Source: Microglena sp. YARC
Lineage: Eukaryota; Chlorophyta; Chlorophyceae; Chlamydomonadales; Chlamydomonadaceae
DNA length: 64,000 nt
Direction: 5' to 3'
Assembly (NCBI GenBank): GCA_022414725.1
Contig: CM039464.1
Span: forward strand, 37,033,609 to 37,097,608
In this document: positions 20,501 to 64,000 of the stretch, in pieces
Numbering within the stretch: position 1 is the first letter of the stretch
Layout: every line of letters starts with the position of its first letter
Made by a program: the position numbers and the translations under genes
Notes under the pieces: model-generated
What the model was told of the DNA's origin: nothing
What the model saw: only the letters and a program-made list of their open reading frames with translations
Databases searched by the model: none

Positions 20501-22728
20501 TCGGACATGCCTGCTCCTGCTCCTGCTAGAGCTTCAAACATGAAAACTTCTTCTCTTGCTATTACTTCGGGCATGGCATCTCCATCTCCCACCAATACCT
20601 CGGATATGGCATCTCCATCTCCAGCTAATACCTCAGACATGCCTGCTCCTGCTCCAGCTCCAGCTTCAGACATGAAAACTTCTTCTCTTGCTAATACTTC
20701 GGGCATGGCATCTCCATTTACCACCAATACCTTGGATATGGCATCTCCATCTCCCGCTAATACCTCGGATATGCCTGCTTCTGCTCCAGCTCCAGCTTCA
20801 GACATGAAAACTTCCTCTCTTGCTATTGCTTCTGACATGGCAACTCCTTCTCCCACAAATACCTCGGACATGGCATCTCCATCCCCCGCTAATACCTCGG
20901 ACATGCCTGCTCCTGCTCCTGTACCTGCTACTGCTCTAGCTTCAGACATGAAAACTTCTTCTCTTGGTATTGCTTCGGACATGGCATCTCCTTCTCCCGC
21001 TAATACCACGGACATTGCATCTCCATCTCCCGCTAACACCTCGGACATGCCTGCTTCTGCTCCAGATCCAGCTTCAGACACGGAAACTTCTTCTCCTGCG
21101 ATTGCTTCAAACAAGGCATCTCCTTCTCTCGCTGGGGGCCTGGCCCAGGGGGTGGAGATGTGAAAAGAGGGCAAGTCACCCAGCGTAGGGGTCGACTCAC
21201 GCTGCCTCTTGGCTTTCTCATTCCAACCCTCACCATGCCCATTTCCACCTCGCTCCTCTTGAGCATGAATGTCATACTGATTCATGGAAGTAGAGACGGG
21301 GGTTTCCCATCTGCCTCCAAAATGAACCATTTCACTAGCTGAAGAGTAGGCAGCATCTGCCATATCTGCAGCTGACACACCTGTTTCATTGAGAACAACA
21401 TGTGCGGGTGTGAAACGTTGGGTTGAATGTGATGGGTATAGGGAAACCGTAAATGTCTGCTTGATGTGTGGCAGATGCACTTGATTGATGGGGGATAGGA
21501 CCAGGTTTGTTAAGTCATATTTGATTAGGTGGGTATGAGAAGGCATATGCAGCGTCCCAAGCGACATGGAAAATTGACGGAGAGTGCTGGCAACGGAACG
21601 ACAGGTGGCAACGATGGAGCTGACTGAAGCCAGTTAGCTATGAGACAGTTGGCTGACGTGTCAGGCTTTGTCTCGGTCCTCGGTCGGACGGTCGGTTGGA
21701 CAGACGGACAACTTGGTGAATCTGGGGGCTCTCGCCCCCCAGGAGGGGGGGCTCCGCCAAAAATGGGTATGGAATGTGATTATATGAATGTGTGATTGTA
21801 CTGGATGAAGAGAAGGCAGCATCTGCTATATCTGCGGCTGACAAACCTGTTTCGTTGAGAACAACTTGTGCGGGTGTGAAACGTTGGGTTGAATAGGATG
21901 GGTATAGGGAAACGGGAAAATGCCTGATCTATACGTGGCTGGCGCTCCTGTTTTGTGGAGGATATAAGCAGGTTTGAAATAAGATGGGGGTGAAGATGGG
22001 TGTAGGGAAAATGGGACATGAGGAATATGAATGCGTGGTTGTACTTGCTTCAGTGTACTCCTTACACCCCACACCCACCCACCCATCCACATGCACTCAG
22101 CCGCTATCCTTCCCACCCAAACACACACACCCCATCACCACCACCACCCGCTATCCCCCGGTACCCGCTACCCCCCACCCACCCCACCCCCACCCCACTA
22201 CCACCCGCTACCGCCCACCGCCCCCCCCACCACCACCACCACCACACACCCACACACACCCACACCCACACACACACATATACTGCTACCACCACCACCA
22301 TCACTCCATTTCCCTCCTCCCCTTTCACGCCCACACCATAACCACCAACACACAAATACATGTAAGACAGTACGAGCCTTCACCCCTGCATTTGCTAACA
22401 CACCTGACGTTTGAGACTGACTATTCATTGACCGAATGAGGGACAACAAGGGCAGGGGGGTTTCGGACATGCTGGCCGCAGCCCCCCCACAGGGGGGGGC
22501 ATATGCAGCAACCTCGGAAGTGGCTGCACCAGCCAATCCGAAGGCCGGCTGGGTGATGCTATCGAGGGTTGAAGCATCAAGGGATGGACCATCACTATAA
22601 TGCTGACTGAGCTGCTTGATGGCACTGATGATGGGGTAGCGTTGACTTGGGCTGTTGCTGGCAGTGCCTGCTACTAATGCTGCTGTGGATGCTGCCGGAT
22701 GGGACATGGATACACGCTCTGTATGCAT
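17524..22728 (-). CDS. Large acidic repeat protein, two exons, function unknown
   Basis: I do not recognise the family. Proposed structure: complement(22404..22728, 17524..21380), 1393 residues, TAA stop. Exon 1 ends in phase 1 at ACGTCAG before gtgtgt; exon 2 begins after AACAG with GTGTGTCAGC, and the phases agree, giving TSGVSAAD across the junction. Exon 2 is also open upstream to 21567, so an alternative start exists. The large exon contains four repeat blocks (residues counted from the alternative start at 21567): about five 45-residue units with SEAGAGAGAGMSEVLAGDGD (155-390); 4-5 units of 35 residues with TQPAAYTSPGVSLSPLDDEV (448-606); four copies of a SCFGEDAIEL..LLDAL motif (near 673, 727, 920, 1031); and about five 31-residue units with ESLGAFSSEYEGEEVARMDE (1058-1210). 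It is very rich in Glu, Asp, Ala, Gly and Ser, probably disordered, with no signal peptide or membrane segment. A donor-like GTGCGT near 17633 could mean the tail differs. Confidence 0.7.
21381..22403 (-). repeat. Intron with duplicated acceptor junctions and CA/CCA microsatellite
   Basis: This is the intron of the acidic repeat gene. The stretch around its acceptor (plus strand: GCTGACACACCTGTTTCATT through AACGTTGGGTTGAATG) recurs at about 21838-21915 almost unchanged and, more diverged, at about 21940-22015. On the minus strand each copy ends in AACAG followed by an exon-like start (GTTTGTCAGCCGC, GAGCGCCAGCC). The two intron ends also share CAGGTGTGTYAGC. From 22070 to 22330 the plus strand is a C/A-only microsatellite (CCACACC words). 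The rest, 21568-21780, is unique. Confidence 0.7.
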
Positions 22729-26235: not shown

Positions 26236-29200
26236 TTATACCACCACCTTGCGGGGAAGAGCCCGGCCTTCGATGAGCTTCATACCACCAAACTTCAACC
26301 TCTCATCGAGAAGCTGGCTCTCCTCTACCTGATCTTCATCGGTGTCAACATCTGATGAAAATGCAGATACAACCTCGTCTTCCTCGGTGTCAAAATCTGA
26401 TGATACCGCAGATACTAAGCTAAAACGCTGAGCCGCATCGCTACCTCTTGAGAAGTCCACCTCGGTATCGGTATCAGAGTCGGACTCTGTGGCCTGGTCT
26501 GAGGGGCCAAAACCCAGGTCCTTAGCTTGGACCCATCCTGATGGAACTCCGAAGTAGCACTCACGCTCGATGCCCATGTTGTACAGGTTGCCCTGACCCT
26601 TAGCATACGCTGAGGTAACGACGCGGGCAAAGCCATCCTCACCCCAGGGCTCTCCCCAGCTGTTCCTCATGATCCAGTACTCAGTACCATCCTCCTCGCC
26701 CCAACCAACGACGCTAATGACATGGTTAGAGTCAGGCTCGTTGGGCAGGTAGTCAGCGAAAATGCCACCTGAACACAGGGCAGAATATAAGTGAGAAGTG
26801 GAAAAGTGCCACTATGCTCCCCCATAATAATACGAATATATGATCCAAACCAATTTCTCAAGGCAAATAATGACTGAAGTTGTGGACTACACAAGATTTT
26901 GTGGGATTCAGGATCAAACTGTATTCCTACCAATTTATTTTTTGAAAACGCGAAGAAAGAATACATGTGCATATCGTATTCGCATGTATCTCCTAGATAC
27001 TTGCGAGTGCTATGTTATGCACAGGTATCTCATATATAATTGTTCACAGTATGCGTGCCTAACTGAAGCGTTCACGAGTCTCACTTTCATATGCATCTAG
27101 GTTGTCAGTGGCGTGGATGCTGCAGCTGATTGGCCCCCTGGCCAGGATCTCAGCCTTCATCTCGAACTCTCCAGTAACCATGCCGTACTCATTGATGGTG
27201 AGACGCTCGTATTCATAGATGGGCTGGCACCCCTCCTCAGGCCAGCAAGTGAAGCACTGCTCCAGATCATGGCACGCCTCATTGTGTGCGACGTACTGGT
27301 TGCAGGTGTCAGGGGGGATTCCCTTCTCAGCAGCATACTTGTAAACCCCATGGTCCCAGCCTGTACAAAAAGGAAGAGTAGGGTAGTGAGCAAGTAAATA
27401 TCTGTATATAGATCATAGGAAGGGAAGTGAGCAACACGATGGTCCAACAAACCCCAATGACCCAGCCTGTACAAAAAGGAAGAGGAGGGCAGTGGGCAAG
27501 GATATATACACGTATATATATAATAGGAAGGGAAGTGAGCAACACGATGGTCCCACACACTCCATGGTCCCAGCCTGTGCAAGAAGGAAGAGGAGGGCAG
27601 CGAGAGAGGGTATATATATAGGAAGGGAATTGAGCGCCACTATGGTCCCATGCGGACTTCATGATTTTAACCTGCACCAAAAAAGCAAAAGGAAAGGAAG
27701 TGAGAGTCAGTATGCTTTTGAAGGCTGCTATCAAATCATCAAACATTATGTGAAGCTCACGCTGCCGCACTTGCTAGAAAACAGCAGAGATACATGCACA
27801 CATACATGCACCCACTGTCAGGGATTTGTTTTTCAAATCTGAAAGTGGGTTTTTTGTAGCTTCATGGTCTTAGGCCTCGTCCAGGGACAGCGTTTTATGG
27901 CTTTTTATAGCTCGTATAGCTTAAGGGCGATTTGGGGCGATTTATAGCCATGTAAGGCAAATACATTTTATTTCTTTATTTTTGTACCGGCAATTTGGGC
28001 CAATACGGGGTCAGAAGTAGCGATCGCTATATATTGAGGGGAATATTCCAGCCCATAAATGCTTGCGAGCTTCGTGTACTCCAGAAGGGGCACTAAATAA
28101 TTAAATACTTAAATCAGCTTAAATAAATAATTAGTACGAGGCCTTTCTACGAGGCGCGAATTTAGGAGGGCCAGCCCGTTTGCTTGCACTGGGGCCAACC
28201 CCAGATGGGGTACTCACAGACCTGCCTAACAGATCATCCTAGCTTGTTGCTTGAAGCCTGCAACATGAAGGAGGGGCTTGCACTTATACCATGAAGAGGC
28301 GGAGGTACACTACATTTGACATAGACTAAGCTCCTCTTCTATCCATCAATACATCTATCCTGCCTATATAAATCCATAGATGCAGCATACAGCATAGGAC
28401 GTGCCGTACCTCCACTGCAGCTTCTAGAATTAAAAAAGCTTAACTAACAGTAGAGCTTTATCTAGCCCCATATATGGGGCCACCCCCTATTTAAATTATA
28501 TACTAGGCTTTGCCCATATAGAGCACAGCTAAAGCTATACACTATTAATTGGGTTGCCCCCTGGGGGCCAAATAGCTTTAGCTATTATGCGTACGCCAAT
28601 TCCAAGTATTATAAGGCCACCTGGGTGCCGTACCTCCATTGCAGCTTCCAGCGCCGCCACATGAGATGACATTCTGGACTGACAGAACAGTCTGGGGGAA
28701 GACACCCTGCACAAAAGCACCAATTTTGGAGATGTTAAAAGCATTGCTACATAATGTAAGGCCAGGTAGACAGGTAGCTAACAGTTATAATCCGTGGCTT
28801 TTTCATCAAGCATGTTCAGTAAATGGGTGGAGGCAACCAGAAGATTCATAATTGTAAAAGCATCCACTTCAGCAAATTCATTCTCTTACTTTTTTTACTA
28901 TTTTAAAATCCAGTTCAACATGATCACCCTTGTGTGTCAGCCTACATCAACACATTCGCTGTCTAGAAATCTACTTCAGCATATTCATTCTCTAAGTTTG
29001 ACCTAGTTCAAATGATCAGCATAACCACCTTTGTGCTTCAGCCAAGCTTAACACATTCACTGTCTTGGCCGAAGGGCCTCAACTGACACATACTACAACT
29101 AACACAAACACTACAACGACAACTCAACTAACTAACAATGCTACAACTTACACTACAACTAATGCAAACATAGAACCATCTTGCACCTTCTTTATAATGT

Positions 29201-44124: not shown

Positions 44125-44690
44125 GGCTCACCCATATATAAATAAATACCTACTAGTGCTCATGACCACTAGTGACAGTGCTGCCATGTTGTGGCCAGTG
44201 AAGTGCCTCCTCCCCCCCCCAATAAATAAATAATACGTACCCACCTATGCTCATGACCACTAGTGACAGTGCTTCCATGTTGTGGCCAGTGAAGTGCCTC
44301 CTCCACACCCAATAAATAAATATATTCATACCCACCTGTGCTCATGACCACTAGTGACAGTGCTGTCATGTTGTGGCCAGTGAAGTGCCTCCTCCACACC
44401 CAATAAATATATATATATATATGCATACCCACTTGTGCTCATGACCACTAGTGACAGTGCTGCCATGTTGTGGCCAGTGAAGTGCCTCCCCCCCCCAAAT
44501 AAATATATATATATGCATACCCACTTGTGCTCATGACCACTAGTGACAGTGCTGCCATGTTGTGGCCAGTGAAGTGCCTCCTCCCCCCCCAATAAATAAA
44601 TTGATACCAACCCACCTGTGCTCATGACCACTAGTGACAGTGCTGCCAGGTAGTGGCCAGTGAAGTGCCTCCTCCCACCCAATAAAACTT
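44125..44690. repeat. Tandem array, ~95-115-bp unit, six copies
   Basis: Unit CTCATGACCACTAGTGACAG, TGCTGCCATGTTGTGGCCAG, TGAAGTGCCTCCTCC, then a C-run, AATAAATA words and ATACCCACCTGTG. A seventh, diverged copy stands alone at about 44988-45065. Minus-strand frames reading HFTGHNMAALSLVVMST are by-products. Confidence 0.92.
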
Positions 44691-48536: not shown

Positions 48537-51500
48537 ATGGGTTGCCTTTCAAGCAAAGCCGTTGAAGTGAAGATTGCCAGCCACAAGGAACACCAGAGGA
48601 TCCACTTCAGTAGACCAGGGCATGCTTACATCCCCGAGGCTGATCATGCCGAGCTAGAGAATCAGCTGCTAGCAAAGACCAGGGCCAAGCAGGTGGGGAG
48701 GAGTGCCAAGAAGGCACCACCAGATTATCATCAATCTTCTAGAAGGATTTTTCATTGCATTACAAAGGTGGATGTGGTTGTGGATGTAGAGGAAAGCATG
48801 CATTGCAAATGTGGATGTGGATGTGGATGGTGATGAAAGCATGCATGGGAAATGTGAGGTGAAGGTTCATGGGTGTGGAAAATGTGGGTGTGGTTGTGGA
48901 TGGGGATGTGGATGTGGATGAAAGCGTGCATGGCAAATGTGGATGGTGATGAAAGCATGAATTGCAAATGTGGATGTGGATGGAGATGGAAGCATGCATG
49001 GGAAATGTGAGGTGAAGGTTCATGGGTGTGGAAAATGTGGATGTGGTTGTGGATGGGGATGTGGATGTGGATGAAAGCGTGCATGGCAAATGTGGATGGT
49101 GATGAAAGCATGAATTGTGAATGTGGATGTGGATGGAGATGGAAGCATGCATGGGAAATGTGAGGTGAAGGTTCATGGGTGTGGAAAATGTGGATGTGGT
49201 TGTGGATGGGGATGTGGATGAAAGCGTGCATGGCAAATGTGGATGGTGATGAAAGCATGAATTGTGAATGTGGATGTGGATGGAGATGGAAGCATGCATG
49301 GGAAATGTGAGGTGAAGGTTCATGGGTGTGGAAAATGTGGATGTGGATGTGGATGTGGATGTGGATGAAAGCGTGCATGGCAAATGTGGATGGTGATGAA
49401 AGCATGAATTGTGAATGTGGATGTGGATGGAGATGGAAGCATGCATGGGAAATGTGAGGTGAAGGTTCATGGGTGTGGAAAATGTGGATGTGGTTGTGGA
49501 TGGGGATGTGGATGTGGATGAAAGCGTGCATGGCAAATGTGGATGGTGATGAAAGCATGAATTGTGAATGTGGATGTGGATGGAGATGGAAGCATGCATG
49601 GGAAATGTGAGGTGAAGGTTCATTAGTGTGGAAAATGTGGATGGGGATAAACATGTGGATGGTGATAAAGCATGCATGGGAAATGTGAGGTGAAGGTTCA
49701 TGAGTGTGGAAAATGTGGATTTCGATGGGGATGGGGATGGGGATGGGGATGGGGATGAGAGCGTGCATGGCAAATGTGGATGGAGATAAATACGCGGATG
49801 GGGATAAATATGTGGATGGCAAATGTGGATATAGATGGTGATGAAAGCATGCATGGGAAATGTGGAGGGGATGAAGTGTGCATTTGTGCATCGTGAATGT
49901 GAATGTGGATGAAAGCATGCATGGGAAATGTGAGGTGAAGGTTCATGGGTGTGGAAAATGTGGATGTGGATGTGGATGGGGATGAAAGTGTAAATGGCAA
50001 ATGTAGATGTGGATGGGGATGACAGCATGCATGGGAAAGGTGAGGTGAAGGTTAATGGGTGTGCAAAATGTAGATGTGGATAAAAGCGCGCATGGCAAAT
50101 GTAGATGGGGATAAATACGTGGACGGAAAATGTGGATGGGGATAAATATGCTGATTGGGATGAAAGAATGCATGGGACATGTGAGGTGAATGGTTATGGG
50201 TGTGGAAATTTAGGATGGGGATAAATATGCTAATGGGGATGAAAGTGTGAATGGTAGATGTGGATGTGGATGAGGATGGGGATGGGGATGAAAGTGTGCA
50301 TGGGAAATGTGGATGTGGATGGGGATGGTGATGAAAGCATGCATGGGAAATGTGAGGTGAAGGTTCATGGGTGTGGCAAATGTGGATGGTCATGAAAGCG
50401 TGCGTGGCAAATGCGGATTGGGATAAATATGTGGATGGGGATGAAAGTGTGCATGGCTCATGTGGATGTGGATGTGGATGGAGATGAAAGCATGCGTGGG
50501 GAATGTGAGGTGAAGGTTCATGGGTGTGCAAATAGGGATGGGGATGAAACCGTGCATGGCAAATGCAGATGGGGATAAATATGTGGATGGGGATGAAAGT
50601 GTGCATGGCTCATGTGGATGTGGATGTGCATGGAGATGAAAGCATGCGTGGGGAATGCGAGGTGAACGTTCATGAGTGTGGAAATGTGGATGGGGATGGG
50701 GATGAAAGCGTGCGTATGGCAAATGTGGATGGGATGAAAGTGTGCGTTGCAAGTGTGGATGTGTATGATGATTAAAGAATGCATGAGAAATGTGAGGTGA
50801 AGGTTCATGGGTGTGGAAATAGGGATGGGGATGAAACCGTGCATGGCAAATGTGGATGAGGCTAAGTATGTGGATGGGGATGTGTGAATGGCAAATGTGG
50901 ATGGCGATGTGGATGGTGATAAAAGCATGCATGGGAAAGGTGAGGTGAAGGTTCATGGGTGTGGCAAATTGTCGGATGGGGATAAATAGCGGTGCGTGGC
51001 AAATGAGGATGGGGATACATATGTGGATGTTGATAAAAGCTTGCACGGCAAATGTAGATGTAAATGGTCATAGGCATGGCAATAGGAGATGGGGACATAA
51101 ATGTGTATGGGAATGTGGATAGAAGTATGTATGGGAATGTGGATGTCAAATTGCGTGGCACGGGGATGTGGATATAAATGTGGATGTGTATGTGGATTAG
51201 GAGTGGGATGTGGAATGTGGATGTGTATGTGGATGTGTATGGTGTGATGTGTATTGGATGTGGATGAGAGTAGGTATGGGAAATGTGGATGTGTATGTTA
51301 CAGGCCTGGCAAACGGGGATGGGAATACAAATGCGGATGGGGATGTTTATGCTAACAGGCATGGTGAAGGGGTATGGGAATACATATGTGGATGGGGATG
51401 TTTATGCTAACAGGCATGGTGAAGGGGTATGGGAATACATATGCGGATGGGGATGTTTATACTAACAGGCATGGTGCAGGGGTATGGGAATACTTATGCG

Positions 51501-54500
51501 GATGGGGATGTTTGCGCTAACAGGCATGGTGAAGGGGTATGGGAATACATATGCGGATGGGGATGTTTATGCTAACAGGCATGGTGAAGGGGTATGGGAA
51601 TACATATACGGATGGGGATGTTTATACTAACAGGCATGGTGAAGGGGCATGGGAATACATATGCGGATGGGGATGTTTATGCTAACAGGCATGGTGAAGG
51701 GGCATGGGAATACATATGCGGATGGGGATGTTTATACTAATAGGCATGGTGAAGGGGGATGGGAATACATATGCGGATGGGGATGTTTATACTAACAGGC
51801 ATGGTGCAGGGGTATGGGAATACATATGCGGATGGGGATGTTTATGCTAACAGGCATGGTGAAGGGGGATGGGAATACATATGCGGATGGGGATGTTTAT
51901 GCTAACAGGCATGGTGAAGGGGTATGGGAATACATATGCAGATTGGGATGAAAGCGTGCATGGGAAAGGTGGATGTAAATGGTCGTGGGCATGGCAGATG
52001 GAGATGGGATGTGCGTGTGTGGATGGGGATGAGAGTAATGTATGGGAATGGGAATGTGGATGTTTGTGTGAACAAGCATGGCGAAGGGGTACCAGAATAT
52101 AGATGTGGATAGGGATAGGGATGGGGATGAGAGCGTGCATGGCAAATGTGGATGGGTTATAAATTCGTGGGTGGGGATAAATATGTGGATGACAAATGTG
52201 GATGTGGATGGTGATGAAAGCATGCATGGGAAATGTGGAGGGGATGAAAGTGTGCATTGTGCATGTGAATGTGGATGAAAGCATGCATGGGAAATGTGAG
52301 GTGAAGGTTCATGGGTGTGGCAAAATATGGGATGTGGATGTGATGGGGATGAAAGTGTAAATGGCAAATACAGATGTGGATGGGGAAGAAAGTGTAAATG
52401 GCAAATACAGATGTGGATGGGGAATGTGGCTGTAAACTTTTACGAGCATGGCAAATAGGCCTGGGCTAGGTGAAGTCCTATGCTAGGTGAAAATTGGCGG
52501 AGAGTGTTGGCTAATCAGAGCGACAAGCCGAAGGGGGCACTGAAATCGGGGACAAGCGGATCAAAGCCACGATGTAAAAACGTTGCAAGCCTTGCAACAG
52601 GCATTCGCTTTGAACCTCCCCCCCTCCCCCCTCCCCCACACACAGACCTCCACCCTCCTGTCCCTGCAAGAAGGCTCCTGTTATCCCACGCCTGAAGCAC
52701 AGGCACCTTTCAACGGTCTGGCCGCTTTGAATGGCCCTCCAACTGACGCCCCTCCCTCCCCCCCACAAGCACACACACCTCACACCACTCACAACCCCCT
52801 CCACCTTCGCTGTCCCCCTGGGGCCAGAACGGCTCCTGTTATCGCCCACGCCTGAAGCACAGGCATCCCTTTCAACGGTCCTGGGCCCTTGAAATTTGGC
52901 TTGCCACTGAAACGCCCCCCCCGCCTACACACACACAAACATACACACACACACACACCTTCCATTTTCCACCCTCCCTGTTCCCCCTGCAAGAAAGGCT
53001 CCTGTTTATCCCCAACGCCCCTGGAAAGCAAACAGGCACCGTTTCACGGTCTTGGCCTTTTGAAAATGTGTTCCCACCTGACCCCCCCCCACACGCCACA
53101 ACGCCACACCCACAAAACCGCACAGCACGCCACACCCCCTCCACCCTCCTGTCCCCTGCAAGAAGGCTCCTGTTATCCCACTGAAGCACAGGCACCTTAA
53201 CGGTCCTGCCCTTTTGGATGGCCCTCCACTGCCCCCCCCCCCCACCCCCCCCACCCCCCTCTCCAACACACACCACACACACAACCCTCATTCACCCGCT
53301 TCCCTGTCCCCTGCAGAAGGCTTACTGTTATCCCCACGCTGAAGCACAGGCACGCTTCAACGTCTGGCCTTGAATGGCCTTCCAACTGAAACCCCCCCCC
53401 GCCCCCCACACACACCCACACCCACCAAACCCACAAACCCCACACCCCCTCCACCCTCCTGTTCCCCCTGCAGAAGGGCTCCTGTTATCCCAACGCCTGA
53501 AAGCACAGGCACCTTTCAACGGTCTGGCCCCTTGATGGCCTTCCACTGACCCACCCCCCGCCCCCCACACACAACACACAACACCACACCTCACCCACAC
53601 CCCTCCACCAGCCTTCCCTGGCCTGTCCCCTGCAGAAGGCTCCTGTTTATCCTCACGCCTGAAGCAACAGGCACCTTTTCAACGGTCTGGCCCTTGATGG
53701 CTTCCACGCTGACCCACCGGCCCCCCCCCCCGCCCCCCCCCGCCCGCCCACAACACACACCCCCACACCCCCTCCACCGCCTCCCTGTCCCTGGGCAGAA
53801 GGCTACTGTTTATCGCCACGCTGAAGCAACAGGCACCTTTTCAACGGTCTGGCCGCTTGGAATGGCCTTCCACTGACCCCCCCCCCCTCCCCCCCCCCCC
53901 CCACACACACACACCAACGCTCGCACCCACCCTCCACCTTCCATGTGCCCTTGCAGAAGGCTCCCCGTTATCCCCACGCCTGAAAGCACAAGGCCACCTT
54001 TCAACGGTCCTGGCCCTTGAATTGCAGCTTCCACTGAACCCCCTCACCACCCCCCCCCCCACACACAGTCAAACACCACACCCTCCACCCCTCCCTGTCC
54101 CGCCTGCAGAAGCTCCTGTTAATCCCCACGCCTGAAGCACAGGAACGCTTTCAAGTCTGGCCTTGATGGCCTTCCATGACCCCCCCCCGCCCCACACACC
54201 ACACCAACACCACACGCCGACCCCTCCACGGCCCTACCTGTCCCCTCCTCTGTTTATTCCCACGCCCTGAGCAAGTGCACCTTTCAACGGTGGCCCTTTT
54301 GATGCGCTTCACTGCCCCCCCCCCCCCCCACACACCCACAACACATCCTTCCACCTCCTATCCCCTGCAAGAAGGCTTCCTGTTAGTTCCCCACGCCTGA
54401 AGGCAGCAGGCACTTTCCAACGGTCTGGCCCTTGATGCTTCACTGACCTTCACTGACCCCCCCCCCCCCCCCCCCCCCACACACACACACAACACCACAC

Positions 54501-57500
54501 CCTCCACCCCTCCCTGTCCCCCTGCAGAAGGCTCCTGTTATCCCCACGCCTGAAGCACAGGCACCTTTCAACGGTCTGGCCCTTGATGGCCTTCCACTGA
54601 CCCCCCCCACGACACCCACACCCACACACCCACACACCCACACCCACACCCCCTCCACCCTCCCCTGTCCCCCTGGCAGAAGGCTCTGTTATCCCCACGC
54701 CTGAAGCACAGCACCTTTCAACGGTCTGGCCTTGATGGCCTTCCACTGACCACCCCCCCCCCCCCCCCCCCCCCCCAACACACACACACCCACACCCCCC
54801 ACCCCTCCCTGTCCCCTGCAGAAGGCTCCTGTTATCCCCCACGCCTGAAGCACAGGCACCTTTCAACGGTCTGGCCTTGATGGCCTTCCACTGACCCCAC
54901 CCCCACCACACCACCACTACTACCACCCCCCACCTACCACTTACCCCCCCCCTACCTACCTCCTTGTACCCCCTCCCCCCCCAACCTACCACCCCCCACC
55001 TACCACCTACCCCCCCCTACCTACCTCCTTGTACCCCCCTCCCTCCTCCCTGCTCCATCCCCCCATCCCCTCTCCCTACCTTCCTGTCCCCCTGCAGAAG
55101 GCTCCTGTTATCCCACGCCTCCAGCACACACACCTTTCAACGTTCTGGCACTTGCGGCCCTCCTCTGACACTGCCCCCCCCCCCCCCACCCCCTCCCCTC
55201 TCCCTCCCTCCCTGTACCCCTGCAGAAGGCCCCGGTTGTACCCACGCCTTTGAAGCACATACACCTTTCAACGGTTCTGGCCCTTGGCGCCCCTCCATTA
55301 CACTGCACACACCCACACACACACACACACACACTCTCCCTTCTCGGACACTGCCCCCTCTTGACCCCTGCCCTTCTGACACTGCCCCCCCCCCCCCCCC
55401 CCCCTCCCCCCTCCTCCCTCCTCCCTGTACCCCTGCAGAGCCCGGTTGTACCACGCCTGAAGCACACACACCTTTCAACGGTCTGGCACTTGGGGGCCCT
55501 CCTCTGACACTGCCCCTCCTTATCTTCACCTGCATTCCTTTGAATGCTGACTTGGTCACTGTCATCACCATGGCAAGAGAAGATGGGCTAGACTATGCAT
55601 GGGCACTTGCCAAGTCCCTGCAATCTTGGCTGGTTTGTGTTCTCTCGAACAAGGTAGGTTGGGGTTGGGGAATTAAGCCATTCCGGTGGTGGCGGCTTGT
55701 AGTGGTGGTGGTGGTACTGGGGGTGGTGGTGTGGTGTGTGTGGGGGGGGTGTTCGTAGTGGTGGTGGTGGGTGTGGTGGTGGTGGTAGTAGTGTGGTGTG
55801 TGTTGGTAGTGGTGGTAGTGGTTGGTGGTGGTGGTGGTTTCACGTCATCACCATGGCTAAGAGGAGATGGGCTAGACTATGCATGGGCACTTGCCAAGTC
55901 CTTGCAATCTTGGCTGGTTTGTGTTCTCTCGAACAAAGTGAATTGTGGTCAGTGGACGAAGCCATGGTTGTGTTGGTGGTAGTGGGTGTTGGTAGTGGTA
56001 GTGTGTTCTGTTAGTGGTGTTTGTAGTGCTGGTGTAGTGGTATAGTGGTGGTGATGGTGGTGTGGAGTGGTGGTGGTGGTATTGGTGGAGGCGGTGGTAA
56101 TAGTAATATAATGTAATTATAATTTAATGTTATGTTATGTAGCTATAATGTCATGTCATGTAATATAATATAATGTAATACAATATAAACAAAGTATAGA
56201 GTTATATGTTGTAATGTAATTTAATGTAACTATAATGTAATTAAATGTAATACAATATGATATAATATAATGTAATGTAATAAAATATATAATGCAGCGT
56301 AAAATAATACATTGTAATGTAGTTTAATGTAACTATAATGTAGTGTAATGTAATGTTCACCTTTATGTATCCCTGCACCGTTGTGTCTCCAGGTCCGAAC
56401 GAGTGATTGGGTGCTGATGCAATGTAATATAATGCAATGCAAATATAACATTCCGTACATAATATATTGCTACTTCAATATGATGTAATGTAATGTCCAC
56501 CTTAATGCATCCCTGCACCGTTGTGTCTCCAGGTCCGAACGAGTGATTGGTGCTGCATGCAATGTAATATAATGCAATACAATATAAAATTCCGTACATA
56601 ATATATTGGGGAGGGTTACTTCAATATAATGTAATGTAATGTCCACCTTAATGCATCCCTTCACCATTTTGTCTCCAGGTCCGAACGAGTGATTGGTGCT
56701 GCATGCAATGTAATATAATGCAATACAATATAACATTCCGTACATAATATATTGCTACTTCAATATAATGTAATGTAATGTCCACCTTAATGCATTGCAA
56801 CCCATTTTGTCTCCAGGTCCGAACGAGGGATTGGTGCTGCATGCAATGTAATATAATGCGTGCAATTACAATATAACATTCCGTACATAATATATTGCTA
56901 CTTCAATATAATGTAATGTAATGTCCACCTTAATGCATCCCTGCACCATTTTGTCTCCAGGTCCGAACACGTGATTGGTGCTGCATGCAATGTAATATAA
57001 TGCAATACAATATAAACATACGCATACAATCAATGTAATTTAATTAAATTTAATGTAATGTAAACTGTCCACCTTAATGCATCCCTGCACCATTTTTGTC
57101 TCCAGGTCCGTACACGTGATTGTTGCTGCATGCAGTGTAATATAATATAAAGAAAACAGTATAATGGCTGATTATAGCAACAAATCATTTATAATATTGC
57201 AACAGGATGGTAATGCACTTCGGACCGTCTATATTAATGTAAATTAGTAATTGACAACTCTGCGCACTTCCACCCCTCCACACTCATATACGTAGGTGTA
57301 CGACTCCCTCCAACCATTGTGGTCTCCAGGTCTCTGTCTGTAAATCACGTGTAGAGAATTTGGTGCTGTGCCCCAGTGTAATATAATATAAAATACACTA
57401 ATGCAATCCACAATCGGCTCGAGTAACAACAAAATCATCATTTTAGTTTTGGCTAATGCCCTTAACTAATGTAATGTATTTAAGTTAATGTAATGTAATG

Positions 57501-58691
57501 TCCACCCTCATTGTATCCCTCCATATTGTGTCTCTCCAGGTCCGTACACGTGATTGGTGGCTGGCATGCAGTGTAATATAATAAAAAAACATAATGCAAT
57601 ACAATATAATGGCTGAGTATACAACAAAATCATTTAGTGGTAATGCACCTATAATGTAATGTAATTTAAGTTAATGTATGCCTAATGTCCACCCTCATGT
57701 ATCCGCTCCCACCATTGTGTTTCTCCCAGGTCCGTCACGTGATTGGGTTGCTGCATGCAGTGTAATATAATATAAAAACATAATGCAATACAATATAATG
57801 GCTGAGTATACAACAAAATCATTTAGTGTAATGCACCTATAATGTAATGTAATTTAAGTTAATGTAATGTAATGTCCACCCTCATGTATCCCTCCACCAT
57901 TGTGTCTCCAGGTCCGTACACGTGATTGGTGCTGCATGCAGTGTAATATAATATAAAAACATAATGCAATACAATATAATGGCTGAGTATACAACAAAAT
58001 CATTTAGTGTAATGCACCTATAATGTAATGTAATTTGATTTAATGTAATGTAATGTCCACCCTCATGTATCCCTCCACCATTGTGTCTCCAGGTCCGTAC
58101 ACGTGATTGGTGCTGCAAGCAGTGTAATGATAATAATAAAAAACATAATGCAATAAATATAATGGCTGAGTATACAACCAAAATCATTTAGTGTAATGCA
58201 CCTATAATGTACATGGTTAATGTCCCACCTCATGGTATCCCCCACCATTGTGTCTCCAGGTCCGTACACGTGATTGGTGCTGCATGCAGTGTAATATAAT
58301 ATAAAAACATAATGCAATACAATATAATGGAGTATACAACAAAATCATTTAGTGTAATGCACCTATAATGTAATGTAATTTAAGTTAATGTAATGTAATG
58401 TCTACCCTAATGTGTCCCTGCACCATTGTGTCTCCAGGTCCGTACAAGTGACTGTTGCTGCATACAGCTTGGACTGCTGATCTGTCAGGTGTCCAAGGGG
58501 GACCGGACACCACCCACCCACACCCACCCCCACCACCCCCACCATTGTGTCTCCAGGTTCGTACAAGTGACTGGTGCTGCATACAGCTTGGACTGCTGAT
58601 CTGTCAGGTGTCGAAGTCTATCCAGTGCTTAGACAAGGAAGCTTTGAGAAGGCTGAATGGCTTCTCCGTCTTCACAGAGGAACTAAGGATG
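48537..58691 (+). CDS. Unknown gene with array-filled introns (partial model)
   Basis: I do not recognise the protein. Supported pieces: a first exon from ATG 48537, MGCLSSKAVEV, to about 48692 (KTRAKQ before gtgggg), whose MGCxSSK start fits N-myristoylation plus palmitoylation; an exon at 55439-55653 ending TMAREDGLDYAWALAKSLQS then WLVCVLSNK, donor gtaggt; and an exon at 58557-58691 (45 codons) beginning VRTSDWCCIQLGLLICQVSK and ending FTEELRM, donor gtgcgt. The last two join in phase 0. A possible exon lies at 52490-52610. No exon can be placed within 48770-52440. Linking 48537 to the later exons rests only on strand and absence of other genes. The gene continues past the window end, because the last donor is followed by more intron. 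Confidence 0.5.
48765..51310. repeat. Minisatellite of GGATGTGGATG words, 120-185-bp higher-order unit
   Basis: Units contain AAAGCATGCATGGGAAATGT, GAGGTGAAGGTTCATGGGTG, TGGAAAATGTGGATGTGG, GATGAAAGCGTGCATGGCAA and ATGTGGATGGTGATGAAAGC. The most regular higher-order units (48830-49630) are about 174-186 bp; further right the order decays. On the minus strand this opens frames of up to 422 codons reading HLTFPMHASISIHIHIH; these are by-products of a stop-free repeat and not a gene. Confidence 0.92.
51310..51945. repeat. 55-bp tandem repeat, about 11 copies
   Basis: Very regular unit GGGAATACATATGCGGATGG, GGATGTTTATGCTAACAGGC, ATGGTGAAGGGGTAT. Copies differ by single bases. Confidence 0.95.
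51946..52440. repeat. Return of the GGATGTGGATG minisatellite
   Basis: Same word set as at 48765-51310, ending with two copies of GGGGAAGAAAGTGTAAATGG-type words and AAATACAGATGTGGATGG. Confidence 0.88.
52640..55438 (+). repeat. ~120-190-bp array repeating a splice acceptor and exon start
   Basis: About 18-20 units. Each has a C-run (up to 24 C), a CACACA stretch, CTCCACCCTCCCTGTCCCC, TGCAG, then AAGGCTCCTGTTATCCCCAC, GCCTGAAGCACAGGCACCTT, TCAACGGTCTGGCCCTTGAT and GGCCTTCCACTGAC. The last unit (acceptor cctgcag before 55439) is continuous with a long open exon, which shows what the unit is: the 3' end of an intron plus the first ~75 bases of the exon. The exon part stays open (PEAQAPFNGLAL) in many copies. 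Flanking frames on the minus strand rich in Gly are by-products. Confidence 0.88.
55654..56100 (+). repeat. GGT/GTG microsatellite with a duplicated exon end
   Basis: GGTGGTGGTGTGGTAGTGG words on both sides of 55840-55945. That stretch is a second copy of 55562-55660 (CGTCATCACCATGGC, GATGGGCTAGACTATGCATG, TTCTCTCGAACAA), but its junction reads CAAAGTGAATT instead of CAAGGTAGGTT, so the copied donor is damaged. Confidence 0.88.
56100..56345. repeat. TAATGTAAT-rich low-complexity stretch
   Basis: Degenerate TAATGTAATG/TATAATG words leading into the following array. Confidence 0.85.
56345..58556 (+). repeat. ~140-190-bp array repeating an intron 3' end
   Basis: About 14 copies of a unit containing TAATGTAATGTCCACCYTHATG, ATCCCTGCACCATTGTGTCT, CCAG, then GTCCGTACACGTGATTGGTG, CTGCATGCAGTGTAATATAA and an AT-rich spacer. 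The final copy (acceptor TGTCTCCAG before 58557) runs into the open exon VRTSDWCCIQ. The internal copies keep TCTCCAG and about 30 exon-like bases and then turn into AT-rich sequence. The unit is about 140 bp in the first half and about 180 bp in the second, differing by an insert with GGCTGAGTATACAACAAAAT. Confidence 0.92.
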
Positions 58692-59040
58692 GTGCGTTTT
58701 AAACATAATAAATGTATACATATATTAATATATAGAGTTAAGCCTATCCATTGCTTAGACAAGGAAGCTTTGAGAAGGCTGAATGGCTTCTCTGTCTACA
58801 CAGAGGAACTAAGGATGGTGCGTTTTAAATACAATAAATGTTCAAATGTATTAAAATATTTAATTTAGTCTATCCAGTGATTAGACAAGGAATGATTCGT
58901 TTTTTAATGAATAAATAATAAGTCTATCCAGTGCTTATATCAGGATGCCTTGAGAAGGCTGAATGGGGTCTCTGACTACACAGAGGAACTAAGGATGGTG
59001 CGTTTCATATACAATAAATATAGGGCGGCAAATAGATCTA
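58692..59040 (+). repeat. Long-unit copies of an exon end and its donor
   Basis: After the exon ending at 58691, the exon 3' part (CTATCCAGTGCTTAGACAAG, GAAGCTTTGAGAAGGCTGAA, CAGAGGAACTAAGGATG) plus donor GTGCGTTTTAAA is repeated three times with decay: near 58743-58845 (good), 58868-58910 (partial) and 58922-59020 (altered donor context GTGCGTTTCATA). Confidence 0.9.
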
Positions 59041-59045
59041 TATTG

Positions 59046-59046
59046 C

Positions 59047-59077
<31 letters not shown>

Positions 59078-59078
59078 A
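59046..59078. repeat. Poly-C (22) followed by poly-A (11)
   Basis: Twenty-two C (59046-59067) and then 11 A. It lies at or near the junction between the donor repeats and the LINE fragment. Confidence 0.9.
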
Positions 59079-59099
59079 TTATAATATATATATTACATT

Positions 59100-61285
59100 A
59101 CATGTAAAAATCTACTTGACACCGCGAGGTGGTATGAGACTCTGTGCTTTAAACAAAAAGAAAAAAGCACCCACAAAGCAAAAAACCCCATTACATCAGG
59201 GGTGTGTCGAGGACAAAACAAACCAAACTCCCAACGCAGTCCGTTTTGGTGGCGTAGGTATTAAACCCCTTAGAGCAGGACCCAGATCTCAAACCACTTA
59301 CAGTGGCGGAGGTAAAGAAGCTTAACAAATGAGAAGTCTCAAGAAGAAAAAAAAGGGATAATAAATTACGGTGCCACTAAGCAGTCCAGGGCTTCCTGTC
59401 TTGCTCTTCTACAAGTAGAAAGATAGTCGGCTAGGTTGCTCCCAAAAAGACTTAGTGCCATTTCCATTCATAAAAGGTTCTGAATGTGGAATCGCAGAAT
59501 TCCACATTCCATACGGTTAAGTCGGTATCCTCATGGACATGCCTATAAATATCTGTAAACAGATTCTGGTAGCGGAGGCGAATATCATTATAAAAAAGGC
59601 ACTCAAACATATGCATTTTCATCCTCAGTTTTTTTGGAACCCACCACACATTTGACAGTGTCTCATTGAGCGAGGGATGTGTGCTCTATCCACCACCCTC
59701 ATTCTTTCTGTGGTTCAGCCAATGGGAACCCATTCTAAACTGTGGGGCTATAGAACGAATCTGATCCTGCTTATGTAAGGCGGATGTAAAAGGAATCAAG
59801 CCATTCTTCATTCATTGCTGTTGGCTGCGAACCATTTTTTGGTATCGGAGGCGTTTAAAAGCCAACCCTTCTCTCATCAGGGGATGTCTCTAACTGCATT
59901 GGTGTCACTTGGGTACTTAAACCTCCATGACTCAAAAACTTCAGACATAATACCTTCGACATCGACAGCCTCCAAAATGTTGATGTTTTTACTGGGTATC
60001 CTAAAGCTTGTGGAGAGCACAACGCAAGTCATGAACCCAGCCAGTGTTGGAGTCAAAAAAGATTCCTCAAGAGCCATTCTAATGAGATCCTCAGGTTCTT
60101 TATGTATGGTCTTGTTCCAGAAGCGCAAAGCTTGTTTAAGCCAAGCAAAACACAACGGGGTTCTACCCAGCTCTTCCATGATAATATTAGATGTAGTAGA
60201 TTGGCAAACACCCAACATTTGTTTAAGTATACCTCTATGCCATTTCTCACAAGCATGGTCATTTGAGATAAGTGTGTTGTTCAGAATAGAAGGAGCCCAC
60301 ACCTCACAGCCAAAATCAGGATAGGTTGTACAAGAGAATCAAACAGGTGGGTGAGAATATCAATATTGTATATCTCCATAGTATGGCATCGCCTACGAAG
60401 CATGTGGTGTGCCTTTTGGGCTTAGTGAGCATCCTAGAAAAAGCAGCTTTTGCACGATTGCTTGAGTCACCATCCACAAAGAGGGATCCCAAGTAGATAA
60501 AAGATAACTTTGTAGAAAGTTGTGCTCCATCATAGACAAATTTGTAATCAGGATCCATGCGGGCCTCATCACAGAATTGTTTGTTGAAAACGACAATCTC
60601 AGTTTTCTTTATATTCACAGCCATCTTAGTAGCTCGCAGAAAATCTCTCAGGCAGTCAAGCATCGCTTGCATATCTGCCGGGGATTCTGCCATTATAGCT
60701 AGGTCATCAGCATAAAGTAACAGTTGCAGAATCTTTCCCCTAAGCTCAGCCCCTACATTGGGAGCTTGGATTTGGAGGAACGATTCAATTCTATCAATGA
60801 ACAGACCGAATAGGAGTGGGGATAGGGGTCTCCTTGTTTAACTCCTACAAGGGATGGAAAGGAGGATCCAATGTCCCCATGTAGGCGAACTTGGAAAAAC
60901 AACATGATTATACATGGACTTCAGAATACTGAGATAGGGGTCCTTGACTCCTAGCCTTGCTAAGCAATCCCATAGCAAGTCTCTGTTGACCCAATCATAA
61001 GCCTTCTTGAAATCAACAAAAGCACAAAGAGTGGTTTTTTCTTTTCTCTATATTTATCTACAATATGGTTAAGAATGAATGATGCATCTGCAGTACCCCT
61101 ACCACTTCTAAATCGATATTGGCCAGCGGCTCTGAGGTTGAATTCTTCTGACCAATCATCTAGTCTACGTAGCATGCAAAGGGAGAAGATCTTTCCTATG
61201 GAGTTGCTCACCGCAAGACCTCGATAGTTGTCCTTGTCATACACACTGCCTTTGGATTTGGGTACGGGTACCAAGGCAGAATATA
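59100..61285 (-). mobile_element. 5'-truncated LINE-type retrotransposon fragment
   Basis: The minus strand carries the C-terminal two-thirds of a non-LTR reverse transcriptase, see the pseudogene entry. It begins abruptly at about 61281 and splits the donor-junction array of the surrounding intron into a left part (58692-59040) and a right part (61560-64000). That placement shows it inserted after the array had started to form. 5' truncation is typical of LINE integration. The exact 3' end (59068-59450) and the target duplication could not be determined. Confidence 0.8.
59452..61281 (-). pseudogene. LINE reverse transcriptase, truncated and frameshifted
   Basis: In order on the minus strand: PVPKSKGSVYDKDNYRGLAV (start of the RT palm; 61270-61210), AGQYRFRSGRGTADASFILN (about 61125-61065), FVDFKKAYDWVNRDLLWDCL with the first catalytic Asp (about 61020-60965), a shifted GVKQGDP stretch near 60835, then LLLYADDLAIMAESPADMQ with the YADD catalytic box near 60700. 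The connection domain follows: LKQMLGVCQSTTSNIIMEEL and GRTPLCFAWLKQALRFWNKT (about 60220-60115), and a C-terminal MHMFECLFYNDIRLRYQNLF (about 59610-59555). Frames change near 61035, 60850 and 60330-60300. No endonuclease domain is present. This identifies a LINE-class element; its clade was not determined. Confidence 0.88.
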
Positions 61286-61555
61286 TATAGCAAATATATC
61301 TATTGTGTATATCTACAACATATGCAGTTACATCAGATAGACACCGGAAAATCCAGTCAAAGCGCCTGCAATATGATATGGTGCCCTATGCCATAATTGT
61401 AAAACCAGATTTTGATTTTTGCAAGGTGCCCTATGCCATTTTTCAAAAATCCAGCTTCGCCAATATCGCTTATATAGATCTATATAGATCTATCTCTGTA
61501 TATATCGATGCCTCTCCCTAAATAAATATGATAAATATATTAAATTACATTAAAA
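61286..61555. other. AT-rich intron sequence between LINE and array
   Basis: TATATAGATC words and a duplicated GGTGCCCTATGCCAT..TT at about 61379 and 61426. No gene. Confidence 0.5.
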
Positions 61556-64000
61556 TATACAAACACAGAGGAACTAAGGATGGTGCGTTTTAAACAATAA
61601 GTATGATAAATGTGAAAATATATTGAAATATACAAACACAGAGGAACTAAGGATGGTGCGTTTTAAATACAATAAATGTGATAAATGTATATATTGAAAT
61701 ATCAAACACAGAGGAACTAAGGATGGTGCGTTTTAAATACAATAAATGTGATAAATGTAAAAAATATATTGAAATATGCAAACACAGAGGAACTAAGGAT
61801 GGTGCGTTTTAAATACAATAAATGTGATAAATGTAAAAAATATATAGAAATATGCAAACACAGAGGAACTAAGGATGGTGCGTTTTAAATACAATAAATG
61901 TGATAAATGTAAAAAATATATTGAAATATGCAAACACAGAGGAACTAAGGATGGTGCGTTTTAAATACAATAAATTGATAAATGTAAAAATATATATTGA
62001 AATATGCAAAACACAGAGGAACTAAGGATGGTACGTTTTAAATACAATAAATGTGATAAATGTAAAAAAATATATAGAAATATGCAAACACAGAGGAACT
62101 AAGGATGGTGCGTTTTAAATACAATAAATGTGATAAATGTAAAAAATATATTGAAATATGCAAACACAGAGGAACTAAGGATGGTACGTTTTAAATACAA
62201 TAAATGTGATAAATGTAAAAAATATATAGAAATATGCAAACACAGAGGAACTAAGGATGGTGCGTTTTAAATACAATAAATGTGATAAATGTAAAAAATA
62301 TATTGAAATATGCAAACACAGAGGAACTAAGGATGGTGCGTTTTAAATACAATAAATGTGATAAATGTAAAAATATATAGAAATATGCAAACACAGAGGA
62401 ACTAAGGATGGTGCGTTTTAAATACAATAAATGTGATAAATGTAAAAAATATATAGAAATATGCAAACACAGAGGAACTAAGGATGGTGCGTTTTAAATA
62501 CAATAAATGTGAAAATGTAAAAAAATAAATATAGAAATATGCAAACACAGAGGAAACTAAGGATAAAAATACAATAAATGTGATAAATGTAAAAAATATA
62601 TATGAAATATGCAAAACACAGAGGAACTAAGGATGGTGCGTTTTAAATACAATAAATGTGATAAATGTAAAAAATATATTGAAATATGCAAACACAGAGG
62701 AACTAAGGATGGTGCGTTTTAAATACAATAAATGTGATAAATGTAAAAAATATAATATAAACACAGAGGAACTATGCAAACACAGAGGAAACTAAGGATG
62801 GTGCGTTTTAAATACAATAAATGTGATAAATGTAAAAAATATATAGAAAATATGCAAACACAGAGGAACTAAGGATGGTGCGTTTTAAATACAATAAATG
62901 TGATAAATGGTAAAAAATATATTGAAATATGCAAAACACAGAGGAACTAAGGATGGTGCGTTTTTAAATACAATAAATGTGATAAATGTAAAAAATATAT
63001 TGAAATATGCAAACACAGAGGAACTAAGGATGGTGCGTTTTAAATACAATAAATGTTGATAAATGTAAAAAATATATGAAATATGCAAACACAGAGGAAC
63101 TAAGGATGGTGCGTTTTTTAAATACAATAAATGTGATAAATGTAAAAAATATATAGAAATATGCAAACACAGAGGAACTAAGGATGGTGCGTTTAAATAC
63201 AATAAAATGTGATAAAATGTAAAAAATATATTGAAATATGCAAACACAGAGGAACTAAGGATGGTGCGTTTTAAATACAATAAATGTGATAAATGTAAAA
63301 AATATATTGAAATATGCAAACACAGAGGAACTAAGGATGGTGCGTTTTAAATACAATAAATGTGATAAATGTAAAAAATATATTGAAATATGCAAACACA
63401 GAGGAACTAAGGGATGGTGCGTTTTAAATACAATAATGTGATAAATGTAAAAAATATATTGAAATATGCAAACACAGAGGAACTAAGGATGGTGCGTTTT
63501 AAATACAATAAATGTGATAAATGTAAAAATATATTGAAATATGCAAACACAGAGGAACTAAGGATGGTGCGTTTTAAATACAATAAATGTGATTAAATGT
63601 CAAACACAGAGGAACTAAGGATGGTGCGTTTTAAATACAATAAATGTGATAAATGTAAAAAATATATTGAAATATGCAAACACAGAGGAACTAAGGATGG
63701 TGCGTTTTAAAATACAATAAATGTGATAAATGTAAAAATATATATTGAAAATATGCAAACACAGAGGAACTAAGGATGGTGCGTTTAAATACATAAATGT
63801 GATAAATGTAAAAAATATATTGAAAAATATGCAAACACAGAGGAACTAAGGATGGTGCGTTTTAAATACAATAATGTGATAATGTAAAATATATTGAAAA
63901 TATGCAAACACAGAGGAACTAAGGATGGTGCGTTTTAAATACAATAACATGTGCAAACACAGAGGAACTAAGGATGGTGCGTTTAAATACAATAAATGTG
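61556..64000 (+). repeat. ~73-bp array, ~34 copies of an exon end plus splice donor
   Basis: Unit ACACAGAGGAACTAAGGATG, then GTGCGTTTTAAATACAATAA, ATGTGATAAATGTAAAAAAT, ATATTGAAATATGCAA. The first 20 bases are the end of the exon at 58557-58691 (TEELRM) and the next are its 5' splice site and intron start. Nearly every copy keeps ATG/GTGCGTTTTAAA. Copies differ mainly by one-base indels in A/T runs, which may be partly sequencing error. The array runs off the window end. Frames on both strands are by-products. Confidence 0.95.

What the first reader, a model, noticed from the sequence alone, without database searches (positions are those of the whole stretch)
48537..64000. Introns built from tandem copies of their own splice junctions
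In one plus-strand gene, three successive introns are filled with arrays whose unit spans an exon-intron boundary: acceptor plus exon start (52640-55438), acceptor plus exon start (56345-58556), and exon end plus donor (58692-59040 and 61556-64000). In each case the copy adjacent to the array continues into an open exon and the two best exons join in phase. The same pattern recurs in the protease and acidic-protein genes of this window. This points to a genome-wide process of intron growth by junction-centred tandem duplication. Tandem duplication of AGGT-containing exon sequence is a known proposed route of intron gain; amplification to dozens of junction copies is not something I know to be described.
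Basis: partly seen in the sequence, partly recalled or inferred. Interest (0 to 1): 0.88.

Follow-up and report, generated by a model that had tools for sequence, protein, structure and literature searches.

The report
Introns filled with their splice-junction copies
In this green-alga genome many introns appear to have grown by tandem duplication of stretches that run across their own exon edges, so one intron can hold several to dozens of extra copies of its own splice site, which points to a concrete way long introns can arise and gives a natural test of how cells choose the right splice site.

Summary
In detail: three arrays in the window gene repeat a splice junction (17 and 14 acceptor copies, 35 donor copies, functional ones included). 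That gene has no detected homologue, so I tested genes with known exons. In 13 dynein heavy-chain loci I kept 33 of 48 homology-modelled introns; 26 of 33 hold extra copies of their own exon end or start, against 0 of 33 for reverse-strand probes. With all 48 it is 31. Copies keep GT (41 of 46) or AG (48 of 49). The same occurs in cathepsin Z in this window and in two chaperonin (CCT) genes. No array lay wholly inside 14.8 kb of modelled dynein exon.

Intron growth by junction-crossing duplication is real and recurrent. 'Junction-centred' is unproven: uniformly placed duplication, with exon-internal copies rejected, gives nearly the same share of introns if they began at 150-250 bp. An excess in long-unit arrays (23 of 27) is matched only by ancestral introns near 100-150 bp. 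The acidic-protein arrays are in-frame coding repeats. No RNA was available.

The parts
52640..55438 (+). Array A: acceptor (cctgcag) plus about 72 nt of exon start, 17 copies found, unit about 150-160 bp; functional (last) acceptor AG at 55437-55438
   Evidence: identity to the functional exon start falls with distance (rho -0.42)
55439..55653 (+). Proposed exon 2 (begins inside a codon, then PGCTTPEAHTPFNG...WLVCVLSNK), ends phase 0 before gtaggt
   Evidence: read; open frame; no homologue (only part of it was in those queries)
56345..58556 (+). Array B: acceptor (gtctccag) plus about 30 nt of exon start, 14 copies including the functional one; AG at 58555-58556
   Evidence: rho -0.62 with distance
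58557..58691 (+). Proposed exon 3 (VRTSDWCCIQ...EELRM, 45 codons)
   Evidence: read; no homologue
58692..59040 (+). Array C, first part: exon end plus donor (GGATG|gtgcgttt), longer exonic parts
60319..61385 (-). Reverse-transcriptase (RVT_1) pieces of a retroelement lying between the two parts of array C
   Evidence: Pfam RVT_1 E 4.2e-12 and 0.013, the second below cut-off
61556..64000 (+). Array C, second part: 32 units of 76 bp by TRF, each about 19-20 nt of exon end plus donor; runs to the window end, then 5,000 N
27361..28633 (-). Cathepsin Z/X intron between ...[17 protein letters not shown] and [13 protein letters not shown]
   Evidence: downstream exon by homology; upstream exon read and recalled cathepsin X sequence
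28410..28427 (-). Extra copy of cathepsin Z exon end, followed by donor gtacggcac
27343..27604 (-). 108-bp array of cathepsin Z acceptor plus about 15 nt of exon start; functional exon starts at 27360
44134..44686 (-). Array resembling exon end plus donor (gagcacag|gtgggtat), 6 units of 91 bp; gene not established (CFAP46_N Pfam hit E 0.0011, below cut-off; no PDB match)
17524..21633 (-). Acidic-protein ORF with in-frame coding repeats; NOT junction arrays

Best explanation
Introns of this green alga grow by repeated tandem duplication of segments of roughly 50-300 bp. A duplication inside an exon changes the protein and is removed. One that straddles a splice junction leaves a complete junction at the outer edge of the array (first donor copy, last acceptor copy), so the mRNA can stay unchanged and the copied exon piece becomes intron. 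Repeats of this, plus unequal exchange within arrays, fill introns with copies of their own junctions. Shown from sequence: the copies, their geometry, retained AG/GT, absence of arrays from modelled dynein exons, decline of identity with distance from the junction, and differences between paralogues at the same intron. Inferred: that duplication is by slippage or unequal exchange, that newer copies arise next to the functional junction, that the outer copy is the one spliced, and that exon definition makes this tolerable.
For: 26 of 33 homology-modelled dynein introns contain copies of their own exon edges, against 0 of 33 for reverse-complement probes and 3 of 992 and 10 of 992 in introns of other dynein loci; 31 of 48 if all modelled introns are kept, reverse control 0 of 48. 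Introns with exonic copies fall from 17/33 (end) and 15/32 (start) at the junction to none from 135 nt on. 41 of 46 and 48 of 49 copies keep GT or AG. No array (period 20 or more) wholly in 14,789 bp of modelled exon, against 59 arrays in 35,425 bp of intron. Changes seen in one copy only are 10/8/10 by codon position, so copies are not constrained as coding. Identity to the functional exon falls with distance in 13 of 15 arrays (sign test 0.007). Paralogues sharing an intron carry different arrays. Family searches show rows of partial exon copies in PF08393 and PF12774; CCT-alpha and a second CCT gene each have exon-end copies. A neutral simulation reproduces the share of introns affected.
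Against: No RNA: which copies are spliced is not observed. Most data are from one gene family (13 loci; L037 and L039 needed 6 and 5 frameshifts in the model and may be pseudogenes or error-rich). 15 of 48 modelled introns were dropped by hand, and only 5 of those 15 have copies. Sites that vary among copies do show a third-position excess (18/18/37), which I read as copies made from different past versions of the exon, but coding constraint or conversion is not excluded. The light-harvesting search (129 rows) showed only two candidate partial-copy groups by eye and the CCT search two (72 rows), so genes differ or short fragments escape. Long-unit arrays are junction-derived more often than uniform placement predicts unless ancestral introns were near 100-150 bp. 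The simulation drew its periods from the observed arrays and made about twice as many long-unit arrays as observed (about 60 against 27), so it is only a rough guide.
Confidence: 0.75

Rival explanations
1. Junction-targeted duplication: breaks, R-loops, nucleosome edges or recombination at exon boundaries make the junction itself a preferred duplication site, so introns grow from their ends.
For: 23 of 27 arrays with period 100 or more, and 12 of 12 of those with 90% or higher TRF match, are junction-derived, against 7.5 and 3.6 expected for uniform placement at the intron length before that array. Simulations give 0.75 at 150 bp ancestral length and 0.59 at 250 bp, and 0.41-0.54 at 150-300 bp if 40% of growth steps are other insertions. 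Twelve of 12 has P 0.03 at 0.75 and 0.12 at 0.84. Relatives have median introns of 198-343 bp (PMC8226300). Different junction arrays at introns shared by paralogues.
Against: With ancestral introns of 100 bp uniform placement gives 0.84. Intron interiors are as duplicated as their ends. Judged by TRF intervals alone there is no excess (16 of 59, 15.1 expected). Counts are not independent: shared paralogue arrays and split arrays reduce 23/27 to about 19/23 by my own hand count, P 0.28 at 0.75 and 0.015 at 0.59. Homogenisation can make old arrays look young.
Confidence: 0.25
2. Assembly artefact: long-read assembly errors create or inflate the tandem copies.
For: Array A copies carry many small indels; N stretches occur in and next to the window.
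Against: Two paralogous loci share array features that their exons lack, such as the unit joint (by eye); several arrays have a constant exonic breakpoint; identity is graded along arrays.
Confidence: 0.05
3. Introner-like or other mobile element that inserts at splice junctions.
For: Recurrence at many junctions.
Against: Arrays carry their own gene's exon sequence; exon probes match introns of other dynein loci in only 13 of 1,984 comparisons; exonic extents differ between arrays.
Confidence: 0.03
4. Function: arrays of splice-site copies are kept because they tune splicing, for example as decoys or to reinforce exon definition.
For: GT/AG kept in 89 of 95 copies; AG/GT columns match in 0.91-1.00 of copies against means of 0.80-0.85 for the other near-junction intron sites.
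Against: Exonic parts of copies are 0.92-0.94 identical to the functional exon, so high retention needs no selection; changes in single copies show no codon bias.
Confidence: 0.07

Closest known systems
[quoted passage not shown] abstract and introduction read)
   Same: A tandem duplication crosses an existing intron-exon boundary and exon sequence becomes intronic.
   Different: One duplication in one gene, and it created a new intron; here existing introns are lengthened, with up to 12 extra copies in a dynein intron and 35 copies in the window, in several gene families.
Rogers/AGGT tandem-duplication model and fission-yeast 24-bp AGGT arrays with an intron across four duplicates (cited in the PMC4974935 introduction)
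   Same: Tandem copies of exon sequence that end up spliced out.
   Different: There both splice sites come from the exonic repeat; here units carry exon plus intron and the old junction persists at the array edge.
Internal tandem repeats at human exon-intron boundaries, 27 intron modifications (PMC2812944; results part 1, one section and passages read)
   Same: Minisatellites lying on exon-intron boundaries alter intron structure.
   Different: Recent segmental-duplication paralogues, repeats often also retained in exons; here 26 of 33 introns of conserved dynein genes.
[quoted passage not shown] 1995; title seen as a reference; that it is the human gene 6-16/IFI6 with short units is recalled)
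   Same: Tandem units each carrying a donor site.
   Different: A single locus with short units (recalled).
[quoted passage not shown] 2007; title seen as a reference, paper not held)
   Same: Introns derived from tandem arrays, by its title.
   Different: Content not read; the title concerns origin of introns, not growth by junction copies.
Long introns of Chlamydomonas and relatives (PMC8226300; passages read)
   Same: Green-algal introns that are conspicuously long, with the driving mechanism left open.
   Different: No tandem junction arrays are mentioned in the passages I saw.

Membership tests
Minisatellite (internal tandem repeat) at an exon-intron boundary | Tandem array whose unit overlaps a real exon-intron boundary | tested here: met
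   24 of 40 arrays with period 45 or more in 33 dynein introns carry exon-edge sequence; cathepsin Z; CCT-alpha, one extra copy
Minisatellite (internal tandem repeat) at an exon-intron boundary | Repeat is removed from or alters the transcript | not testable with these tools
   no RNA data
Intron gain by AGGT exon duplication (Rogers model) | Both splice sites come from a duplicated exonic segment; a new intron appears | tested here: not met
   Copies continue into the intron flank with the existing site; two intron positions are shared by two and four paralogues that differ in arrays, so those introns predate the arrays that differ
Introner-like elements | Near-identical intron sequences dispersed among unrelated genes | tested here: not met
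   Exon probes match other dynein loci's introns in 13 of 1,984 comparisons; this tests the exonic part of units only, within one gene family
Tandem exon duplication | Copies contain a whole exon with both splice sites | tested here: not met
   The 24 junction-derived dynein arrays class as end-type 13, start-type 11, both 0; a downstream locus shows a unit that looks like a whole exon, not verified
Junction-targeted duplication process | Junction-derived arrays exceed uniform placement | tested here: inconclusive
   23 of 27 against 0.41-0.84 by assumed ancestral intron length, mutation and other growth; 16 of 59 against 15.1 by intervals

The most novel reading that the evidence does not exclude
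A genome-wide, ongoing, junction-preferring duplication process: new tandem copies are repeatedly made from the exon-intron boundary itself, so introns grow from their splice sites and keep a graded fossil record of earlier exon versions.
Probability: 0.25. Interest if true: 0.85.

Novelty: new variant of a known kind. Interest (0 to 1): 0.66.

Why it matters
How introns become long is usually put down to transposons (general knowledge), and for green algae the source of long introns has been left open (PMC8226300). Here a concrete source is visible: tandem duplications that cross exon edges. It also sets a natural experiment for splice-site choice. In a dynein intron with 12 extra acceptor copies the cell must use the last acceptor, and in donor arrays the first donor, as exon definition would predict. 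Gene finders, long-read assemblers and studies that look for exon remnants in introns should expect such copies.

Tried and rejected
Considered and rejected: an introner or mobile-element origin; assembly error as the main cause; the acidic-protein arrays as junction arrays; coding function of the copies (with the 18/18/37 caveat given above). The first count, 26 of 33, looked like proof of a junction-centred process; simulations showed that uniform placement gives nearly the same, so I withdrew that reading. The pooled third-position excess of mismatches (41/31/102) looked like coding constraint, but it counts one exon change many times and single-copy changes show none. In one search array class was judged by TRF interval (16 of 59 spanning, 15.1 expected); by exon sequence in the unit (24 of 40, 10.1 expected). 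Both are reported; I prefer the second because several arrays stop just short of the functional copy.

Led nowhere: homologues of the window gene; CFAP46 identity of the 44 kb array; a plasmid look-up; naming the alga by assembly size; spaced 10-kb stretches as a source of exons (few clear exons, not pursued). Kinesin (PF00225) and the own-genome protein search did not complete. The extent script was capped at 150 nt and gave zero or negative values where a copy's window overlapped the functional junction.
Full report
WHAT IS THERE. It is a photosynthetic flagellate: 129 chlorophyll-binding matches, a CP29 protein whose best PDB matches are CP29 chains, and a dynein AAA1 exon that differs at two of 106 residues from a chain of entry 8glv. 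That 8glv and 6kac are Chlamydomonas entries is recalled. I take it to be a green alga; the species is not known. Tandem repeats with period 25 or more cover 29% of the window and 0-79% of each of 20 further stretches, four of them downstream and 16 spaced over three contigs.

THE THREE ARRAYS. Array A repeats a polypyrimidine-AG acceptor plus about 72 nt of exon start (17 copies found), array B another acceptor plus about 30 nt (14), array C an exon end plus donor (35), functional copies included. A retroelement reverse transcriptase, minus strand, splits array C. The gene has no detected homologue, so its exons stay unproven.

HOMOLOGY-ANCHORED TEST. In the same window a cathepsin Z/X gene (PDB 1deu, E 2.9e-18) has an intron between ...SCNGG and WDHGVYKY.... 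It contains an extra copy of the exon end with its donor and two clear extra copies of the acceptor with the exon start. A search of the whole genome with the dynein domain PF08393 returned 67 matches in which partial exon copies stand in rows: four copies within positions 313-346 before the full exon 314-385 on C1 at 29.81 Mb, five copies within 226-259 after exon 167-259 on C3 at 56.95 Mb, and others. PF12774 (69 matches) gave the same, for example seven exon-end copies after the P-loop exon at C1 61.04 Mb (sequence).

I fetched the dynein loci and wrote a spliced protein-to-DNA aligner. It modelled 48 introns in 13 loci. From that listing I dropped 15 whose splice sites or alignment looked doubtful, before the copy count, though after seeing the tblastn listing of repeated fragments. 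Of the remaining 33, 17 contain extra copies of the upstream exon's last 30 nt, 15 of the downstream exon's first 30 nt, and 26 either; reverse-complement probes gave 0. Of all 48, 31 have copies, and of the 15 dropped, 5; the reverse control stays 0 of 48. 12 of 13 loci are affected. Exon probes against introns of other loci matched in 3 and 10 of 992. Copies keep GT in 41 of 46 and AG in 48 of 49; 57 of the 95 spacings lie in 105-175 bp by my count, with extremes of 65 and 552. The homology of copies reaches a median of 79 nt into the exon (quartiles 30 and 99, 88 copies, capped at 150), with a constant breakpoint in several arrays (for example 102-103 nt in nine copies of L039, 77-79 in 11 of L040) and a varying one in others (32-132 in L029).

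CHAPERONINS. PF00118 returned 72 matches with two partial-copy groups by eye. In CCT-alpha (PDB match E 1.5e-33) about 170 nt of exon end with donor and intron start recur about 330 bp downstream. A second gene of this family shows a short and a long exon-end copy. In the light-harvesting family I saw only two candidate groups by eye. So the pattern is recurrent but not equally visible in all genes; short fragments would be missed in these searches.

HOW IT WORKS. (i) No array (period 20 or more, score 50 or more) lies wholly within 14,789 bp of modelled dynein exon, against 59 (period 20 or more, score 80 or more) in 35,425 bp of intron. (ii) Exon sequence is found in the intron in 17/33 and 15/32 cases next to the junction, 7/32 and 8/31 at 60 nt, and none from 135 nt on; windows inside introns are duplicated in about half to 86% of introns at all depths tested (lowest 5/17 when low-complexity windows are left out). 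(iii) Changes seen in one copy only fall evenly on codon positions (10/8/10); differences shared by all copies are mostly third-position (3/0/9), as expected from change in the living exon; sites varying among copies are 18/18/37, which fits copies made at different times from a changing exon but does not exclude other causes. (iv) In 13 of 15 arrays with three or more extra copies (three of them from the window) identity to the functional exon edge falls with distance (P 0.007). (v) L029 and L031, 85% identical over 192 residues, share introns but not all arrays: at alignment column 362 L031 has three exon-end copies that L029 lacks; at column 450 L029 has two exon-end copies that L031 and L039 lack, and L042 has no copies. 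Another array, on the P-loop exon, looks to have the same breakpoint in both paralogues (by eye). Arrays therefore seem to arise, persist and turn over.

IS THE JUNCTION SPECIAL? By sequence content 24 of 40 arrays (period 45 or more) are junction-derived against 10.1 expected for uniform placement on collapsed introns, 23 of 27 for period 100 or more against 7.5, and 12 of 12 for 90% match or better against 3.6, at intron lengths before the array. By TRF intervals alone there is no excess (16 of 59, 15.1 expected). Forward simulations with uniform placement and rejection of exon-internal events give exon-edge copies in 31.5, 29.5, 28.3 and 25.1 of 32 introns for ancestral lengths of 100, 150, 200 and 250 bp, and junction fractions of long-unit arrays of 0.84, 0.75, 0.68 and 0.59; with 40% of growth steps from other insertions 0.41-0.54 at 150-300 bp. 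The observed 0.85 fits 100-150 bp, is marginal at 200 (P 0.04) and unlikely at 250 (P 0.003); collapsing related arrays by hand to 19 of 23 weakens this (0.10 and 0.015). The simulations use the observed periods and make about twice as many arrays as observed. Median introns of Chlamydomonas relatives are 198-343 bp. A junction preference is thus suggested, not shown.

KNOWN OR NEW. Single cases of junction-crossing duplication and boundary minisatellites are in print (PMC4974935, PMC2812944; Turri 1995 and Zhuo 2007 seen as titles in reference lists). A tandem-duplication route to novel introns in Drosophila is in an abstract I read (PMC2891723). My searches of the open library listed no title or abstract start reporting introns of conserved genes widely filled with copies of their own junctions; subscription journals are mostly not held. 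I call it a new variant of a known kind.

LIMITS.

Noticed in passing
L009-L012 (C3:37097609-37137608, downstream of window): Further arrays that look like acceptor plus exon start (for example ...GTACAG|GGTGTGCCTGGCATG) and one unit with what looks like acceptor, whole short exon and donor; exons not verified.
   Followed up: partly
C1:29822600-29824200 (L045) and C1:61042900-61045000 (L044): Two dynein paralogues share an exon-end array on the P-loop exon with what looks like the same breakpoint, each apparently homogenised within its own gene (by eye); one late L045 copy is closer to the living exon than the copies before it, as if by gene conversion.
   Followed up: partly
17524-21633 (-): Acidic 1369-aa ORF with five in-frame coding repeat arrays (periods 93, 45, 57, 210, 132).
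   Followed up: partly
37160-37246 (+): U6 spliceosomal RNA match just above the gathering score (44.9 bits, cut-off 44).
   Followed up: no
33939-34418 (+) and 34855-36201: Ankyrin-repeat ORF followed by arrays of about 105 bp (35-residue units); not clear whether coding or intronic.
   Followed up: no
C2:53.99-54.17 Mb: Cluster of many light-harvesting-family matches close together.
   Followed up: no
40138-41370 (+): DDE superfamily endonuclease (transposase-like) ORF, Pfam DDE_1 E 1.2e-7.
   Followed up: no
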